Shown one piece after another: positions 1,471 through 56,318 of a DNA stretch of 64,000 bases. Source of the DNA: Phaeotremella fagi (Eukaryota; Basidiomycota; Tremellomycetes; Tremellales; Phaeotremellaceae); the NCBI GenBank assembly GCA_001599715.1, contig BCHU01000009.1, forward strand, positions 372,001-436,000, written 5' to 3'. How positions within the stretch are numbered: the stretch's first letter is position 1; each line of letters opens with the position of its first letter. Made by a program: the position numbers and the translations under genes. The notes beneath the pieces were generated by a model, which worked only from the letters and a program-made list of their open reading frames with translations, ran no database searches and was not told the origin of the DNA.

Positions 1471-4400
1471 ATGCAATACCTATCGAAAGCTTATAACTAC
1501 TGTGAGTCCAACAAACAATCCCCCTAATCCTCCATAGACTCTGGTATCAACCCCGCCACTCTATCAGGAGCAATCGACGTGATAGTAATCAGACACACCG
1601 ATGAAGTAAGTCCAAGTCCACTCCCAAGTCCACTCCTAACCACCCCTAATAGTCCGGCGAAACAACCCTCTCCTCCTCCCCTTTCCACGTTCGATTCGGT
1701 AAACTCCAAGTCCTACGAGCAGGTGAAAAAAGAGTTACCATCCGTCTACCCAATAACCTACCTTCACCCCATGTCGCTCCTTTTAGTATGAAAGTCGTCG
1801 AAACTGGAGAAGCGTTTTTCGTTTTTGAGACGGAAGAAGATGTTCCTGATGAATTGTTGACTAGTCCTGTGGTTATGGCTGAGGATGTAGGTTAATTTCG
1901 TTGTTATCTAGATTAGAAACTGACCTTTTTGATTGGCAGACGAATTTAGATATCCCACCTTCACCACCACCATCTGATCAAGAATTCTTCAATGAAGTCC
2001 CTAACGAAATCTTGACTAAACAACCTTTTGGGGATACTGAACAGAAAATCGATCATAGTCATCACCACAATCAAAGACCTTTGAGTGACGTCGATTTCTT
2101 AGATCTCGATGCTCAGAGTTCGACAATACCCAAGAAGAAAAGTACGGATTCACTCTCATCACTTAATCTATCATCTGCAGTATCACCTTCATCAATATTG
2201 AACACCGCTTCGTCGTTGATTCCATCGTTTTTAACTCCGTCAACGTCAAAATCAGGTTCACCGGAGAAGGATAAATCTAAAAATCCAAGTCATGAGACGC
2301 AACCACCTCCTAATCCTATGGAAGCTGGACCGGGTGAATCACCAGAATTGCCTCAACACAACACCAAGTTGACTCATATCGATCGAAAAGAACATGTGGA
2401 CGACGACGGTCAGTCAACATCAGAAGAGGTCGGTGACGAGTTGTTACCAAAAGTTAAAGCTGGTGAAGGTGATGGTCCTGAGGTACTTTATCAGAAAGAC
2501 GTGGTGATTGATCCTAAAGGATATCATATTTCTCGAGGAGAATCGTCAAGTGATCTACCAAAAGAGGTGGAGAGAGACGAAGATGCTATCCCCCCACCCG
2601 ATCCCCAAGCAAGCTTGGTAGAAGCCTTCATCCAAGATCTCATGGCATCCGCAAAACTACCTCTCGATTCTGAACCCCAAAGACCTCCAGTTGCATCCCG
2701 ACAAACCGATCCAGCACTTCACGTCGAACCCGTTCCAACACCTATCCCCACCGGTCTTGAATCAGCGTCAAGCCCAGATCTACCAACCGCTCTCGAATCT
2801 CTTCATCTCGAATCCGATCATCCAGATATCACACCGACACCTTCACCCCGTCGACAGAGAGTTCAATCTGAACCCCCTGAATCCCCTCCAACACGTTTCC
2901 CAATTCTGGCAACTTCACCAACTAGACTATCTAGACCTCCCAACGGTGCTTTGTTGCCTTCAATGTCCGGTTTACAGGCCGTTGGAACGCATGCTGATAT
3001 GGATTATGCTTGGGATTGGGGTAGATTACCTAGTCAATCTGGTGTTAGTGATCACGATGATGTGGATGATGAAATCACTCATATGGAGAGGAGTATGACA
3101 TTACCGGCAAAAGTTGAATCTATCGAATCGGATCATCATCTTGATTTATCCCAGGTGCCACAAGGGAAATTGAAGAACGTTGAAGAAGACCCTTTCATGT
3201 TCGTTCTGGAGATGGAAGGTGGGAGACGTCATAATTTTGAATTGGCTTTGAGTGATGGGGAAGGATTCTTGGATGCTCATGAATCTGTGAGTTTGACCTT
3301 TCTGGGACTGGACTGATAGTAGGACGAGGAGATGACACGGTTCTTGAAGAATAGAGTTACGTTTCAGAGATTCATTGAAGATCCGCGTTTGGTCGATGAT
3401 CCTCGTCTGGTCATTCGATATAATTCATTGTAAGTTCAATAGCCACTACATGACTGACGATAGGTATTTCACTTGGACAACTGGTTATCATCTGTTATTA
3501 GCACTAAGTGCATATAGACAATCCCTTACTCCACCGAATCTATCTTCTCCATCGGTCCCAGCCCAAGATGTCGGTACGGCACCTCGTCCGACCTCTGGTT
3601 ACGGTTGGTCGAGATGGTGGAGACGTGGTCAGAGTGGTGCTACTGGAATCACTGAGCCTCCTCCACCACCCCCTGTTGATTCGGTCTCGACATTACCAAT
3701 CGGAGAGAAGAAACATTATGCAAAGACTTTACGTTTGACCTCGGATCAATTGGTGGGTATCTTTTTTAGGTTGTTATTGATTTGATAGAAACAACTTGAT
3801 TTGAAACCTGGACCTAACACCATTTCTTTCTCTGTTACATCGTCCTATTCGGGTTTAGCGACTTGTACAGCAAGAATCTTTTTATGGGAAGATACGGATC
3901 AAATTGTGATTTCTGATATTGATGGGACTATCACAAAGTGAGTCAATGGTTTGAGATCGGAGTTAACCCCAGATCCGACGCTCTTGGACATGTGTTCGCT
4001 GCTATCGGAAGAGATTGGACTCATTTGGGTATAGCCAAACTCTACACCGACATCCATAACAACGGTTATAAAATGCTCTACCTGACTTCCAGAGCCATTG
4101 GTCAAGCCGATTCAACAAGGGAATATCTACGGACGATCATCCAAGGTAATTACAGGTTACCAGAGGGTCCAGTGATCATGAGTCCAGATAGACTCATGGC
4201 AAGTTTACATCGTGAAGTCATCATGCGTAAACCTGAACTATTCAAGATGGCATGTCTGAGAGATATCCAGAGGTTATTCGGGTCACGAGCTAAGGAAGCG
4301 TTCTTTGCTGGGTTCGGTAATAGGATAACGGACGCTATGAGTTATAGAAGTGTTGGGATTGAGACGGCAAAGATTTATACGATCGATTCCACTGGCGTGG

Positions 4401-5075
4401 TGAAGACTGAATTACTTCAGGCTGCGGGTCATAAAGGGAGTTATATACAATTGGTACGTCATGTCGGAAATTCTTACTTTGCTAACGTGATAGAACGATT
4501 TGGTTAATGAAGTTTTCCCACCTGCTTCAACAAAAGTTCGACCTGAATATACAGATTTCAATTTTTGGAAACCGTCATTTGCAGATATACCTTTACCGGA
4601 TCTAACGCCGCCTTCACCAGCGTTATCAGTTCGTTCAGACACTTCATCCAGATTATCAGTGTTAGGTAAAATCACAGGTATCGGTCGAAGATCATCTAAA
4701 CCATTACTCCCGACGAACAGTAGTAACACTGAACCCTCTTCGAGACCTAGTAGTCCGTTAATTGGACCTGCGATGACACCTGACGATTTGTCAGAGGACG
4801 AAAGTGATTATAGGACTAGGAAATCTTCCATGCCTGGTAGTTTCGATGATGGTGATTTCTTCCCGGCGTCTTATGCTGATAGAGAACAACAACGGGCTGA
4901 GGAAGGGAGAAGGGAGGTACATGGACATGGGGAGGTGGGGGATGGTGAGGAAGAGGTGGGTGGGGTTGATATTGGATCTGGAGATAAGGGGGTGGCTAGA
5001 CATGATGACTCTTTTGACGATTTTGATGATGATCTGTTGGCTACCGGTGAAATGGCTAATGTTCCTTTTGATTAG
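1471..5075 (+). CDS. PAH1: Phosphatidate phosphatase, lipin family
   Basis: Mg-dependent phosphatidate phosphatase that makes diacylglycerol at the ER/nuclear membrane and sets the balance of triacylglycerol and phospholipid. Nine exons (1471-1501, 1538-1605, 1653-1886, 1940-3286, 3323-3429, 3464-3752, 3789-3937, 3973-4453, 4494-5075) sum to 3288 nt, 1095 aa. The N-LIP domain covers residues 1 to about 110, starting [26 protein letters not shown] long Ser/Pro-rich acidic linker follows in exon 4. The C-LIP/HAD domain carries the catalytic DIDGT motif (residues 735-739) and [15 protein letters not shown], both typical of lipins. The tail after the catalytic domain is again low-complexity and acidic, ending NVPFD. 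An N-terminal amphipathic helix and the first introns in the N-LIP domain fit fungal Pah1/Ned1. High certainty on identity; exon ends are by eye but phases close exactly. Confidence 0.95.
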
Positions 5076-5195
5076 ATGGATGTTGTAGCATTGGATTTTG
5101 GATTGGTATGCATCGATTCAGATATGATTTTGTGGCATATTGTTCGATTCAATTGATTCATCTTTCGTCTCTATCGTTGTGTAATTCAACTCCTT

Positions 5196-50663: not shown

Positions 50664-51164
50664 TCAAATCTTCTTCTTTTTCAAAAAGCTCCATTCCCCT
50701 TCGGATTCGGCGACTTCTTCCTCTTCCTCTTCCTCGAATTCTTGTATGAAGTCATAAGTTGAGTCGACCTCTTCTTCTTCCTCAACAAGAGTGAAAGTAC
50801 CTGAAATCAAACAACCATACAATGACATCTCTGCTTCACTAACACCATGACCATGATCGATCAACCATCTCTCTATTTCGTCCTTAGCCACAGTAATCTT
50901 CAAATCTTGACTGCTAAAGACAAACGGTCTATCTCTCTGACCTCTATCTCCCCAACGACTGATGGTACAGCGACCCTCTCCCTTAGCTTGACAAATGCCA
51001 TTTGGTTTGAAACATTCTACGAGTTCTGACTTGATTGGTGAATCGGAGGTTGATTTGAAACCGTGCTTGCTAGGTGTAATTTTGGCATTCCAGTAATGAG
51101 CACCCCAATCACCTGTTACGCTTGCAAGTAGTGAACCTTGACATGATTTATCGTTCTCTGGCAT
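50664..51164 (-). CDS. Tandem small orphan protein, copy 1
   Basis: One frame, 166 aa, MPENDKSCQGSLLASVTGDW to EGEWSFLKKKKI. It shares with the gene at 51491-51913 the order SCQGSLL, then W, GFKS/A, ISRWG/IGRWG, VTGYDE-like / SLYGCLISGTFTLV. The last ~50 residues are very acidic (EEEEEVDSTYDFIQEFEEEEEEEV) then lysine-rich. A TATATAAA box on the minus strand (about 51189-51196) is 25 nt before the ATG. Function unknown; family not recognised. Confidence 0.6.
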   Translation of the reverse strand: MPENDKSCQGSLLASVTGDWGAHYWNAKITPSKHGFKSTSDSPIKSELVECFKPNGICQAKGEGRCTISRWGDRGQRDRPFVFSSQDLKITVAKDEIERWLIDHGHGVSEAEMSLYGCLISGTFTLVEEEEEVDSTYDFIQEFEEEEEEEVAESEGEWSFLKKKKI

Positions 51165-51490: not shown

Positions 51491-51913
51491 TCACTTATCA
51501 ACAAGATAAAAAGTACCTGAGATCAAATGATCAAACCCCGCGATGCTACGCTCATCGTAACCCGTAACTCCCTGCTTATCCAACCAAGCCTTTCGTTGTT
51601 CGGGATTAATCGAAGTGACCTTTATATAAGGACAAGTACAGACTGTTTTGCGGAAGGAGTTCACTCCCCAACGCCCAATGGTACAGATTGCATCTCTGTC
51701 ATCTCTTTCACCCGTATACCAACCAGAGGATGTGAAAAGATTTTCGAGGTTTGACTTGACGGTGTTGTTTGAACTAGCATTTGGGGCCGCTTTGAAACCA
51801 CTTGAATGAGATTCGAAGCCAAAAGTACGTTTTTCTTCCCAATTATCTGTTGTGATTCGAATAAGGAGTGAGCCTTGACATGAGTCTTCGGTGCCATCCA
51901 TGATTACGGACAT
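51491..51913 (-). CDS. Tandem small orphan protein, copy 2
   Basis: One frame, 140 aa, from ATG 51911-51913 (MSVIMDGTEDSCQGSLLIR) to LISGTFYLVDK. A second ATG 12 nt in (MDGTEDS) could be the real start. Common to both copies: SCQGSLL-x2-(I/V)T-x-D(N)W, GFK, (I)SRWG/(I)GRWG, SGTF-x-LV. It lacks the acidic tail of copy 1. A TATAAA (51946-51951, minus) lies about 33 nt upstream, in the same relation as for copy 1, so the duplication probably included the promoter. No family assigned. Confidence 0.6.
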   Translation of the reverse strand: MSVIMDGTEDSCQGSLLIRITTDNWEEKRTFGFESHSSGFKAAPNASSNNTVKSNLENLFTSSGWYTGERDDRDAICTIGRWGVNSFRKTVCTCPYIKVTSINPEQRKAWLDKQGVTGYDERSIAGFDHLISGTFYLVDK

Positions 51914-52725: not shown

Positions 52726-54436
52726 CTAGCCCTTGATCTCCATCCCTCCCCACTCGACTACTCTGAAAACCTTCTGATCCATCTGATCCTCAATGGGTGG
52801 AACACCAACGATACTTCTGACTTTCATCAAGTTCTCGTGAATAGTGATAAAGTTGGTTTCATAATATTTCCATTTTGGTAGATCCTCGAGCGGAATACCT
52901 TTGAACAAGAGGAAGATTCTAGTGACGTGTTGTGGTTGAGGGAAGATCTCGAGTGGGCATGCTTTGCTGTACATGTCTTGTGGGAGGAAGCGAAGTGCGA
53001 TATAGTGGTGACGTTGAAGTGAAGGTAGCCAGTATCTGTTGGAATGGTCAGAAAATGCGTACGAAAAGGAGACATACGTGATGAACGAGGTGCGACCTTC
53101 GGTGTGCTAAACAATTCCCTTTCAGCTGAGCTCTTCAACATGTTAGTTGTACTTACGAGACCTAGGTTTTGAAGAGCTCTATCTAAATATGAGGGTGTTT
53201 CATGATATGGTAGAACGATGCCAGTGCTTGAGGTCAAATATTCTGAAGCTTGAGCTGGATGGAAGCAAGTCTGATCGACGGTTTTTGCCTTCAAGATGGT
53301 AGGATTGGTGCTGAATGTAAGGTGTCAGATTACTTGATGTAGGAGCACAATCTCTGAGACTTGGGACCTACTCGGCTACAGCTCAAAATGAGTACGGTTT
53401 GTTCTGAGGGAGTTATCATTGCTCACCTTCCCAGAATAAATATGAAACCTCTAAACCACTCTGCCGATTTTTCAATTTTCCATCAGGAGAAGCGACAATG
53501 TCCCAAGTGACTGTTTCAAATCGTGAAGTTGTAGATGCATTATTTGCCAGTAAAGGTTGGGATGCTGGTAATGATTCGATCAGAGCGGGAGGATAAACTA
53601 CATTAAAAGACCCTGGGGTGAATCAGCATTTTGGTCATTAAACTTCAGAACACTCACATTCATGGCTAAGTGAAAGCTTGACGAGAATTTCGAGTTCACT
53701 TGGTGGGTAAAGATAAATGACAGGTTTACCCCCTCTGAAATTCAAAACTAAAAATATCGTTTGTTCCTTGCATATTTCATAATCCGAGAGCGTACAAGCA
53801 CTAGCCATGTCTCCACTCTCTCCGGAGCGACGTAGTTGACACTGATCTGCTGGTATACCGTCTTTCGCTTGGATCATGTATTTCAACTGATAGATTGTTG
53901 TTGATGGTATGACTTGATATGTTTGAACTTTACCATTAAGTGACTCGACATGTAAGTTGAATGACTTTTTGTTTGCAGGAATTCTGATAACTTCGTCGGA
54001 GACTTTACGTTTTTGCGGAGCAGTAGTCTCGGTACATGATTGAGAGGATGAGGTGGTAGAGGGTACCGTAGTCTTCGAGACCTGAAACGACTCTTTGATA
54101 GATGAGAATTGCAGGTCGTTTGTGAGGAAGAGCGTGTCGATACGGTCTGAGGATGTCGGGCCATGATTCAGCATTCAAACGGTATTCAATCTCTTCGTCA
54201 AACGTCATGAACAGTTGAATTTGGGAAATATCTCTTTCAAGTTCGATAGCGACCAAAAGAATCATTTTCTAAAAGATCCGTTAACTGTGATCAAATGATG
54301 GAGAATTTTATTAACTCACTTCAAAGGTTGAGGGGATGGGAAGCATAAAATGTCGCTTTTCTCGATTGATGGTCTCGAAAGGCCATATTGTCTTCTCATC
54401 GTCAGTGAGTTGAGCATAAGTGATGGACTTTAGCAT
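52726..54436 (-). CDS. Ubiquitin-like / KPVIYLYP-module fusion, copy A
   Basis: About 448 aa in several exons. The order is: N-terminal module (MLKSITYAQLTDDEKTIWPF..., then KMILLVAIELERDI..., SWPDILRPY); a ubiquitin-like domain (residues ~119-198) with KSFNLHVESLNGK, TIYQLKYMIQAKDGIPADQC, TLSDYEICKEQTIFLVL and the end NFRGG at about 194-198; then KPVIYLYPP directly after it; a beta-rich part with WDIVASPDGKL and YLFWE; the 4-nt micro-exon; and LHTEGRTSFITYWLPSLQRH, ending FRVVEWGGMEIKG. The KPVIYLYP, YLFWE and FITYWLP stations are, from memory, those of a bacterial domain found in uncharacterised proteins. To join N-terminal and ubiquitin parts, a weak donor GTCGTT near 54080-54125 must be used or a frameshift accepted. 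Not seen elsewhere by me as a eukaryotic fusion; function unknown. Confidence 0.65.
53372..53375 (-). other. 4-nt micro-exon CCGA of copy A
   Basis: Minus strand reads tgtAG|CCGA|GTAGGT. Exon before ends GAA G (YLFWE + one base), exon after starts C ACC AAT; with CCGA the frame becomes ...WEADTNP. Without it neither acceptor nearby keeps the frame. Confidence 0.55.
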
Positions 54437-54658
54437 GACTATGAGAGAGAATGAAGGTTTTTCTTGTATGTTTTTTTGATGGTTGAGATGCATCATTGAA
54501 ATTGATGCGATTTCGCTTCTCGTTTCAGACTTCAATGTGGCACCAAGACAATTGGCACTCATTCTTACAAGTAACGTCGATGCACTCGCCACAACCCCCA
54601 ACACTACAGTAGGTCTCATTACATACTGTACTTGTACATACAGACTCATCATCGGACA

Positions 54659-56318
54659 CTATTTGACCTCCATACCACCCCACTCAACGACTCGGAAAAC
54701 CTTCTCGTCAGTTTGTTCTTCACGCCCAGGAACACCAACTTGTCCCCTAAGCGCTTCGAAATGAACCCCTCCAAGCTCCTTTCCCTCGGTAAGAGTATAA
54801 CGTTCAAGTTCTTCCTCTGAAATACCCTTAAATAACATGAAGATTCGAGTGACGACTTCTGGTTTGGGAGTGATGTCGAGTGGACAAGCTTTTTCGTAGT
54901 TTTTTTGAGGCAAGAATCGGAGTGCGATATGCTTGTGACGTTGAAGGGACGGAAGCCAGTAACTATATGTTATAGGGTTAGCGTTCGGCTGGTTGAGATT
55001 GGTTTTACTAACGTGATAAATGAGTTTCGCGCTTCGGTATGCTTGATTACAGTCATCAGCTCAATGCATCCAAGCGACTCAAGATACCCACTAGACCAAG
55101 GACGTTTAACGCTTTGTCCAAATATGCAAGGAGATCTTCGAATCTGAGAACAAGACAGTCTTTGACTCCCATATATTGAAGTGGTTGATCGGGACAGAAT
55201 CGGAGCTCATCAACTGTATCTTGCTTTGAAGCAACTTTCGGATGAGTTCTTAACAGTGTCAACAACAAAACGTCGACAGAAGAAGAGCATATGAACTTAC
55301 TCGGCTAAGATTCGTTGCTAATTCAACGAATATTTTGAATTGGTTGTGCGAACGAACTTACCTTCCCAGAATAGATATGAAAGATTCAAACCAGTCTTCA
55401 TGTCTAACAAAGAACCATCCGGTGATGCTTTGACCTTCCAGATGATACTTTCGAGCCGATCGTTCTTATCATCTTCGGGGCGAATTTTGAAAATCTCGGT
55501 TGGTGGATAGATAGCACTGAATGACCCTAACGAATAGCTCCTCAGCTGTCGAACGTCTTGACAAGTTCACTGGTAAACTTACATTATGGAACAAGACCTA
55601 ATTTGACGGAGATGACTTTCTCGGTAGGTGGGTAAAGGTAGATGACTGGTTTTCCACCTCTTAAGGTCACGATCAAGTGGACGATACAATTTGGATACAA
55701 GCCATAATGACTGATTGGATCATCGTCCTTCATTATGACTTTTTCGAATATGAGACGTTGATGTTCTGGAAGAATACCTTCTTTATCCTGAATAAGACTT
55801 TTAAGTCTTAAGACCGTACTATGTGAATCGACAACTAATTCATAAGTCTTTCCAGTAAGTTGTTTGATAGAAATGGAAAACTTTTGGTTGTCATCGTCAG
55901 AGTCAAAAGAAGGATCGAAGCGAACCTTGGCGGAAGTTGTCTTCTTGGTCTTGTGTTGATTCGAACTAACTTCTATTGGGTTTCTGTCGTGCGGGAGTTT
56001 ACACATGTAAAGCTCTAGAATTTCTGGCCATGATTTTTTGTCGATAATGAAAGCCGTACCACACTCGTTAGACATGAAGATAAGAATATCTTCCTTTCGA
56101 GTTTGACAATGAGTAGCGATAAACTCAACCATTTTCTAGAGATATAGTAACATTCAGTGATAGATTCATGTTGGTGTTAAAACCGATTTCATACCACTCA
56201 CCTCGAAAGACAAATCGATAGGTAGCATTACATGAGCGACTTGTTCATCTGTCTTGAAAGTGAATGGCCAGATGATTTTTTTGGTGGATGACAATGAAGA
56301 TGATTGAGATCGAGACAT
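54659..56318 (-). CDS. Ubiquitin-like / KPVIYLYP-module fusion, copy B (in-frame TAA)
   Basis: Tandem paralog of copy A with the same exon layout. Exon 1 (56202-56318, 39 aa) MSRSQSSSLSSTKKIIWPFT...; exon 2 (55583-56135) begins KMVEFIATHCQTRKED, has SWPEILELY, and carries the ubiquitin-like domain (residues ~124-200: KFSISIKQLTGKTYELVVD, LKSLIQDKEGILPEHQRLIF, IVHLIVTLRGG), then KPVIYLYPP at 201. A TAA at 55584-55586 (residue 223) sits one base before the donor, at the place where copy A has GAA. Beyond it the rest is intact: SFSAIYPPTEIFKI, WKVKASPDGSL, YLFWE, micro-exon CCGA, HTEARNSFITYWLPSLQRHK, FRVVEWGGMEVK. A weaker donor (GTCTTG) five residues upstream could bypass the stop. TATATATA at 56358-56366, ~40 nt upstream of the ATG. 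Confidence 0.62.
55299..55302 (-). other. 4-nt micro-exon CCGA of copy B
   Basis: Minus strand reads cttAG|CCGA|GTAAGT, with canonical splice dinucleotides. It joins GAA G to A ACT CAT (acceptor ...gttaag) to give WEAETHP, aligned with WEADTNP of copy A. Confidence 0.6.

What the first reader, a model, noticed from the sequence alone, without database searches (positions are those of the whole stretch)
52726..56318. Tandem pair of ubiquitin-like proteins fused to a KPVIYLYP / YLFWE / FITYWLP module
Two adjacent genes encode, in order, an N-terminal module, a ubiquitin-like domain close to ubiquitin in key positions (IQ.K.GI..(D/E).(Q/C).L ... LRGG or FRGG), then KPVIYLYPP, YLFWE and SFITYWLPSLQRH. 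The last three motifs are, as I recall, the fixed stations of a domain seen in many bacterial proteins of unknown function; their union with eukaryotic ubiquitin is new to me. Sequence and order are seen; bacterial kinship is from memory; function is unknown.
Basis: partly seen in the sequence, partly recalled or inferred. Interest (0 to 1): 0.9.

Follow-up and report, generated by a model that had tools for sequence, protein, structure and literature searches.

The report
Ubiquitin fused to a bacterial domain
Two neighbouring genes of a basidiomycete fungus join a ubiquitin-like protein, right at its Gly-Gly end, to a domain otherwise found in bacterial proteins; many mushrooms carry the same unnamed construct, some with a SUMO-like protein in place of the ubiquitin-like one, which suggests an undescribed kind of cleavable fusion protein.

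Summary
The finding is real and its interpretation holds. Two tandem minus-strand genes encode an N-module, a ubiquitin-like domain (Ubl) ending RGG, then a 240-residue "cap" starting KPVIYLYPP. Pfam ubiquitin: E 1.9e-16 (A), 8.8e-9 (B). The cap has no Pfam, NCBIfam or PDB match, yet scores 111 and 117 bits against a bacteria-only profile (best of 1000 shuffles: 6). Bacterial caps end their proteins, mostly exported-looking ones; a confident cap model found no solved relative. 789 database proteins match; of the 120 listed, all with an organism name are agaricomycetes.

New here: some members carry a SUMO-like Ubl. Gly-Gly directly precedes the cap in 79 of 118 fungal junctions, 0 of 122 bacterial ones. 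G75 is the most conserved column of ubiquitin-type Ubls; Gly-Gly and the nearby Gln rank among the top seven of SUMO-type ones. Ubl type changed at least twice on the cap tree. Best reading: Ubl-capped precursors with a bacterial-type payload, the junction kept for Ubl proteases. Cleavage is inferred; a third of junctions lack Gly-Gly.

Copy A has an in-frame TAA inside the cap and may be inactive. The cap's function is unknown.

The parts
54659..56318 (-). copy A gene; exons 56318-56202, 56135-55583, 55526-55362, 55304-55301 (4-nt microexon), 55248-55092, 55041-55013, 54962-54659
   Evidence: splice model, introns 50-66 nt, GT..AG; no transcript seen
55968..56282 (-). copy A N-terminal module (about residues 13-95), probably a second beta-grasp unit
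   Evidence: homologous part of P0012 models as b-b-a-b-a-b, pLDDT 81-97; VIA aligns it with the first unit of linear di-ubiquitin; boundaries approximate; no sequence match of its own
55653..55880 (-). copy A ubiquitin-like domain, residues 125-200, ending in RGG
   Evidence: PF00240 E 1.9e-16; PDB ubiquitins aligned through residue 200
54659..55652 (-). copy A cap, residues 201-442 over six exons, beginning K201 directly after G200
   Evidence: 110.8 bits against the bacterial profile
55584..55586 (-). in-frame TAA in copy A, directly before the Trp codon that spans the exon 2/3 junction
   Evidence: copy B has a sense codon there
55301..55304 (-). 4-nt microexon of copy A between YLFWE and the next exon
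   Evidence: inferred from frame and from the family consensus YLFWEAxT
52726..54436 (-). copy B gene; exons 54436-54320, 54268-(end uncertain), (start uncertain)-53658, 53612-53427, 53375-53372, 53310-53157, 53106-53078, 53035-52726
53728..53961 (-). copy B ubiquitin-like domain, ending in FRGG
   Evidence: PF00240 E 8.8e-9; alignment to ubiquitin
52726..53727 (-). copy B cap, no stop codon inside
   Evidence: 117.4 bits against the bacterial profile; open frame
53372..53375 (-). 4-nt microexon of copy B, same four letters and place as in copy A

Best explanation
These are Ubl-capped precursors with a bacterial-type payload. A domain that bacteria place at the C-terminus of mostly exported-looking proteins entered an ancestor of basidiomycetes and was joined, with no linker, to the terminal glycine of a ubiquitin-fold protein. 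Shown: the domain homologies, the zero-residue junction, the retention of the Gly-Gly, the coexistence of ubiquitin-type and SUMO-type members. Inferred: the direction of transfer, and that the junction is kept because Ubl proteases read it (USP/UCH type for ...LRGG, Ulp/SENP type for ...QxGG) and cut after the second glycine, releasing N-module-Ubl on one side and the cap with an N-terminal Lys on the other, as in Ub-eL40, Ub-eS31 and FUBI-eS30. The cap is the constant part and therefore the likely payload; the Ubl is the exchangeable part. In this genome copy B looks intact; copy A has a premature stop and may be a young pseudogene. What the free cap does is not known; recognition of a partner rather than catalysis is my guess.
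For: Cap homology to bacteria. In 46 ubiquitin-type members (both window copies included) G75 is the most conserved of 76 columns (0.93); R74 0.78, G76 0.74, L73 0.70, but R72 0.50, K48 0.39, K63 0.22: the tail residues that a protease cleft reads outlast R72 and the chain-building lysines K48 and K63 (the role of each residue is recalled). In 24 SUMO-type members, 29% mean identity to SMT3, the columns G98 0.92, G97 0.88 and Q95 0.79 are among the seven best. The classification left out the last six residues, so it did not use these letters. All 7 of the 15 unclassifiable Ubls that end in Gly-Gly end in QxGG. Gly-Gly: 79 of 118 fungal junctions, 0 of 122 bacterial junctions, background 0.57%. 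SUMO type checked against the PDB for P0115 and P0023: SMT3 1euv_B aligns to the second Gly. Ubl type needs 4 changes on a cap tree of 57 rows, at least 2 forced by starred branches (SH-aLRT only); P0077 (ubiquitin) and P0003 (SUMO), both Mycena kentingensis, are sisters. Between copies A and B the cap keeps 54% identity with dN/dS about 0.2, the Ubl only 29%.
Against: No cleavage was observed. 39 of 118 junctions lack Gly-Gly, among them 17 of 56 ubiquitin-type ones: 14 with another letter at position 76, 3 at position 75; diglycine mutants of FUBI-eS30 are not cleaved (PMC8354635, passages). G76 ranks only about 18th of 76 columns, and K27 0.87, R42 0.74 and K11 0.67 are well kept, so conservation is not confined to the tail. 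In the model of P0012, which itself has RGD, a strand of the cap starts at residue 204, so the junction may be partly ordered. dS between A and B is near saturation in the cap and beyond it in the Ubl, so dN/dS is rough. The trees are unrooted or midpoint-rooted, and one giant-virus protein has the fold too.
Confidence: 0.6

Rival explanations
1. The fusion is never cut. Ubl and cap form one permanent two- or three-domain protein; the glycines are kept as a flexible or tight turn that packing requires, and the Ubl serves as a docking surface for ubiquitin or SUMO receptors.
For: A third of junctions have no Gly-Gly; G75 outlasts G76, as a turn glycine might; the modelled cap strand reaches into the junction; the review PMC11354881 (passages) reports a Giardia ubiquitin-eS31 that stays uncut because of a Gly change.
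Against: The signatures L-R-G-G and Q-x-G-G are each kept with their own Ubl type, which a generic turn does not predict; the ubiquitin I44 patch is only moderately kept (I44 0.67, L8 0.52, V70 0.52; copy B has Arg at 44).
Confidence: 0.25
2. The Ubl is the product and the cap is a propeptide: cutting exposes Gly-Gly so that N-module-Ubl becomes a conjugable modifier.
For: Exposed Gly-Gly is what activating enzymes need (recalled); the Ubl sits behind another ubiquitin-fold unit as in linear di-ubiquitin.
Against: R72, which recalled knowledge ties to charging by the ubiquitin E1, is lost in both window copies (T in A, N in B) and kept in 0.50 of 46 members; between the copies the cap is better conserved than the Ubl, and it stays while the Ubl type changes.
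Confidence: 0.08
3. The window pair is a decaying remnant without function in this genome, whatever the family does elsewhere.
For: Copy A has an in-frame TAA; a third, broken cap relic with stops and frame shifts lies on another contig (L125 about 4201-5150); no tremellomycete is among the named rows of the first 120 database hits.
Against: Copy B is open from the Ubl to its end; the cap of copy A after the TAA still scores 101.5 bits and keeps dN/dS about 0.2 against B.
Confidence: 0.2

Closest known systems
Ubiquitin- and FUBI-ribosomal protein fusions (Ub-eL40, Ub-eS31, FUBI-eS30)
   Same: A Ubl whose Gly-Gly is followed by an unrelated payload; Ubl type can differ between fusions (ubiquitin or FUBI); PMC8354635 and PMC11354881, passages read.
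   Different: Payload is a bacterial-type domain, not a ribosomal protein; full-length members have an extra N-terminal ubiquitin-fold module; Ubl strongly diverged and sometimes SUMO-like; often several neighbouring copies.
Ubiquitin fusions of chlorarachniophytes (to P1, actin, zinc finger protein, Ni superoxide dismutase, a protein like bacterial membrane proteins)
   Same: Ubiquitin joined to partners outside the usual ribosomal ones, one of them bacterial-like; PMC11354881 passage.
   Different: Different partners and lineage; the passage read mentions no SUMO-type members.
BIL/BUBL proteins of ciliates (ubiquitin-like domain next to bacterial intein-like domain; recalled, no paper on them was found or 77 and none was read)
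   Same: A Ubl next to a bacterial-derived domain.
   Different: BIL domains are self-splicing Hint domains; no Hint family matched the cap.
Unnamed bacterial C-terminal domain (KPVIYLYP...YLFWE...YWLP...EWGG)
   Same: The cap is a member: same motifs, same order, same C-terminal position.
   Different: 79 of 100 bacterial hosts have a hydrophobic segment upstream, and none of 122 has Gly-Gly before the cap; fungal caps carry longer insertions.

Membership tests
Ubiquitin-fold domain (PF00240) | Score above Pfam's gathering cut-off | tested here: met
   60 bits (A) and 35.4 bits (B), cut-off 25.4
Ubiquitin-fold domain (PF00240) | Beta-grasp fold | tested here: met
Conjugated ubiquitin | R72 for E1 charging, K48 and K63 for chains | tested here: not met
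   A: T72, V48, P63. B: N72, E48, but K63 kept (alignments). Roles of these residues recalled
SUMO | Best PDB match SMT3/SUMO, QxGG end | tested here: not met
   Not for the window copies (ubiquitin-type); met by relatives P0115 and P0023
Ubl-payload fusion precursors (Ub-eL40, Ub-eS31, FUBI-eS30) | Payload starts directly after Gly-Gly | tested here: met
   RGG-K in both copies; 79 of 118 junctions
Ubl-payload fusion precursors (Ub-eL40, Ub-eS31, FUBI-eS30) | Cut by a deubiquitinase or Ulp after Gly-Gly | not testable with these tools
   needs protein
Bacterial KPVIYLYP C-terminal domain (unnamed) | Significant match to a bacteria-only profile beyond the motif used to find the bacterial rows | tested here: met
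   110.8 and 117.4 bits; 101 bits without the first ten residues; best of 1000 shuffles 6.1; hhalign E 1.9e-39
Bacterial KPVIYLYP C-terminal domain (unnamed) | Domain forms the C-terminus of its protein | tested here: met
   Copies end after EWGGMEVK and EWGGMEIKG; all 111 closed bacterial frames of 122 end within 209 residues of the motif
BIL/Hint self-splicing domains | Hint family match in the extension | tested here: not met
   No Hint match in the window proteins (E up to 1) or in 24 bacterial caps (E up to 0.01)

The most novel reading that the evidence does not exclude
Basidiomycetes run an undescribed system in which one bacterial-derived payload domain is delivered behind interchangeable Ubls, ubiquitin-type or SUMO-type, each keeping its own protease signature. 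Which Ubl a paralogue carries decides which protease frees the cap, and the freed cap begins with Lys, a destabilising N-terminus (recalled): nature's own ubiquitin-fusion switch, used in a fast-evolving, tandemly expanded recognition or conflict family.
Probability: 0.25. Interest if true: 0.88.

Novelty: new variant of a known kind. Interest (0 to 1): 0.72.

Why it matters
It points to a domain family shared by bacteria, basidiomycetes and, by predicted fold, a giant virus, for which no Pfam or NCBIfam model and no PDB relative was found here, and shows it welded to the exact processing point of two different protein modifiers. If cleavage is confirmed, Ubl proteases have fungal substrates outside ribosomal fusions and polyubiquitin, and the ubiquitin-SUMO exchange behind one payload gives a natural experiment on why cells fuse Ubls to proteins at all.

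Tried and rejected
Rejected: that the cap likeness is only the KPVIYLYP motif (without the first ten residues it still scores 101 bits). Rejected: that bacterial proteins also have Gly-Gly before the domain (0 of 122). Rejected: that the ubiquitin/SUMO classification was driven by the tail (last six residues were left out).

Limits of the controls: the bacterial rows were found by KPVIYLYP, so the invariance of those eight letters in bacterial alignments is by construction. Of 24 bacterial caps scanned against Pfam, one matched IglE_N weakly, E 0.0051. In one search two polyubiquitin entries stand eighth and tenth among SMT3 entries. Some ubiquitin/SUMO calls have thin margins, for example P0053, P0044 and P0034. 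In one search P0078 and copy B have long branches. In one search the two reversed sequences were not among the twelve rows printed.

An earlier count said 113 bacterial ORFs with EWGG; the correct number is 110 of 122. The tool lists only the best 120 of 789 protein hits, so family-wide statements rest on those 120.

Full report
What is there. The window lies on contig C9 of a 22.6 Mb, 24-contig genome. For the neighbouring Cdc4-like WD40 exon the lowest E-value is Serendipita vermifera (55% identity over 47%), but the highest identity among rows with an organism name is Cryptococcus depauperatus (67% over 50%); all organism names in the 120 rows listed are fungi, mostly basidiomycetes. I take the source to be a tremellomycete-like basidiomycete, as an inference. 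Two minus-strand genes follow each other, copy A (56318-54659) upstream and copy B (54436-52726) downstream. Splicing by GT..AG introns of 42-66 nt gives copy A 442 residues counting one stop inside. Copy B is open from before its Ubl to its end, but its exon 2/3 junction is ambiguous. Both contain a 4-nt exon, CCGA, between YLFWE and the following exon, at the same place.

The fungal family. The first search gave 789 proteins at E up to 0.001; all with an organism name among the 120 listed are agaricomycetes (class assigned from recalled taxonomy). Consecutive locus names suggest tandem neighbours, for example Candolleomyces g13960/g13961, Agrocybe 010306/010307, Schizopora 905930/905931. Some entries hold two caps, such as P0001, which may be true concatenations or merged gene models. 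On a tree of 126 caps the 26 fungal ones, the window copies included, form one side of a fully supported branch, 100/100 (bootstrap not fully settled), which fits a single transfer; the root is not known, so the direction, bacterium to fungus, is inferred from the wider bacterial spread.

The junction. I extracted the residues before the cap in 116 junctions of 113 of the 120 database proteins, plus the two window copies. I classified each Ubl against ubiquitin/NEDD8 and SUMO yardsticks with the last six residues left out. Result: 56 ubiquitin-type (39 with Gly-Gly), 24 SUMO-type (21), 15 unclear (7), 23 too short (12); 79 of 118 in all. Bacterial junctions: 0 of 122; background frequency of GG in the fungal proteins 0.57%. 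For two Mycena proteins the SUMO identity was checked independently against the PDB: SMT3/SUMO entries lead both lists (in one, two polyubiquitins stand eighth and tenth), and SMT3 1euv_B aligns through the second glycine, one residue before the cap. In 46 ubiquitin-type Ubls G75 is the most conserved of all 76 positions (0.93); R74 0.78, G76 0.74 and L73 0.70 are well kept, R72 0.50, K48 0.39 and K63 0.22 are not, while K27 0.87 and R42 0.74 are. In 24 SUMO-type Ubls, with 29% mean identity to SMT3, G98, G97 and Q95 stand among the seven most conserved columns. All seven unclassifiable Ubls that end in Gly-Gly end in QxGG. On a tree of 57 caps the Ubl type changes four times, at least twice on starred branches, and one sister pair within Mycena kentingensis holds both types (SH-aLRT only).

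Mechanism. These facts together favour selection on the junction for Ubl proteases, with the cap as payload, by analogy with ubiquitin-ribosomal and FUBI-eS30 fusions; the diglycine of FUBI is needed for its cutting (PMC8354635, passages). The cut itself, its proteases and its timing are inference. Against it stand the third of junctions without Gly-Gly and the ordered junction in the P0012 model; a permanently fused protein is the main rival. If cutting happens, the cap starts with Lys, which classic ubiquitin-fusion work made a destabilising N-terminus (recalled). Lys is also the first residue of the motif in bacteria, where I used it to find them, so I cannot say that it was selected in fungi for that effect.

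State of the two copies. Between A and B the Ubl has 29% and the cap 54% identity; cap dN about 0.41 against a near-saturated dS about 2.2, much the same beyond the TAA of copy A. So copy A was probably under constraint until recently; its stop at 55586-55584 may be a young nonsense mutation, a strain variant or an assembly error. A third, clearly broken relic of the cap lies on contig C5. The family is thus in turnover in this lineage.

Known or new. Ubiquitin-payload fusions are a known kind. The bacterial-type payload, the leading second ubiquitin-fold unit and the ubiquitin/SUMO exchange at one junction did not turn up in nine searches of the paper library, which excludes most subscription journals. 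Hence: new variant of a known kind, with an unnamed trans-domain family as its payload.

Noticed in passing
window 55301-55304 and 53372-53375: Both copies appear to use a 4-nt microexon with identical letters; it restores the family consensus YLFWEAxT.
   Followed up: partly
L125:4201-5150 (own genome, contig C5 about 314200-315150): A third cap-domain relic, broken by stops and frame shifts, recognisable by VLGL...SLITSWLP, LFKGIPDGELKEW and FRVVEYGAM.
   Followed up: partly
window 50664-51164 and 51491-51913, - strand: Another tandem pair of small, apparently paralogous proteins sharing SCQGSLL, CTISRWG/CTIGRWG and LISGTF.LV; not identified.
   Followed up: no
BFVD A0A3G4ZNZ8: A Terrestrivirus (giant virus) protein of 406 residues is predicted to hold the cap fold, E 3.1e-12; whether it also has a Ubl was not tested.
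   Followed up: no
NC_014825.1:65313-65855: A Ruminococcus albus plasmid, predicted conjugative, carries the cap on a leucine-rich-repeat surface protein, a possible route for spread.
   Followed up: no
L026, L042, L061, L090: Single bacterial loci carry two or three cap proteins in tandem, in the same orientation.
   Followed up: no
L012, L018, L023, L027, L050, L072, L079 and others: Hosts mostly from candidate-phyla bacteria share an upstream ending (a W..D..G/D stretch, then CG directly before KPVIYLYP; CG precedes the cap in 17 of 122), a recurrent architecture.
   Followed up: no
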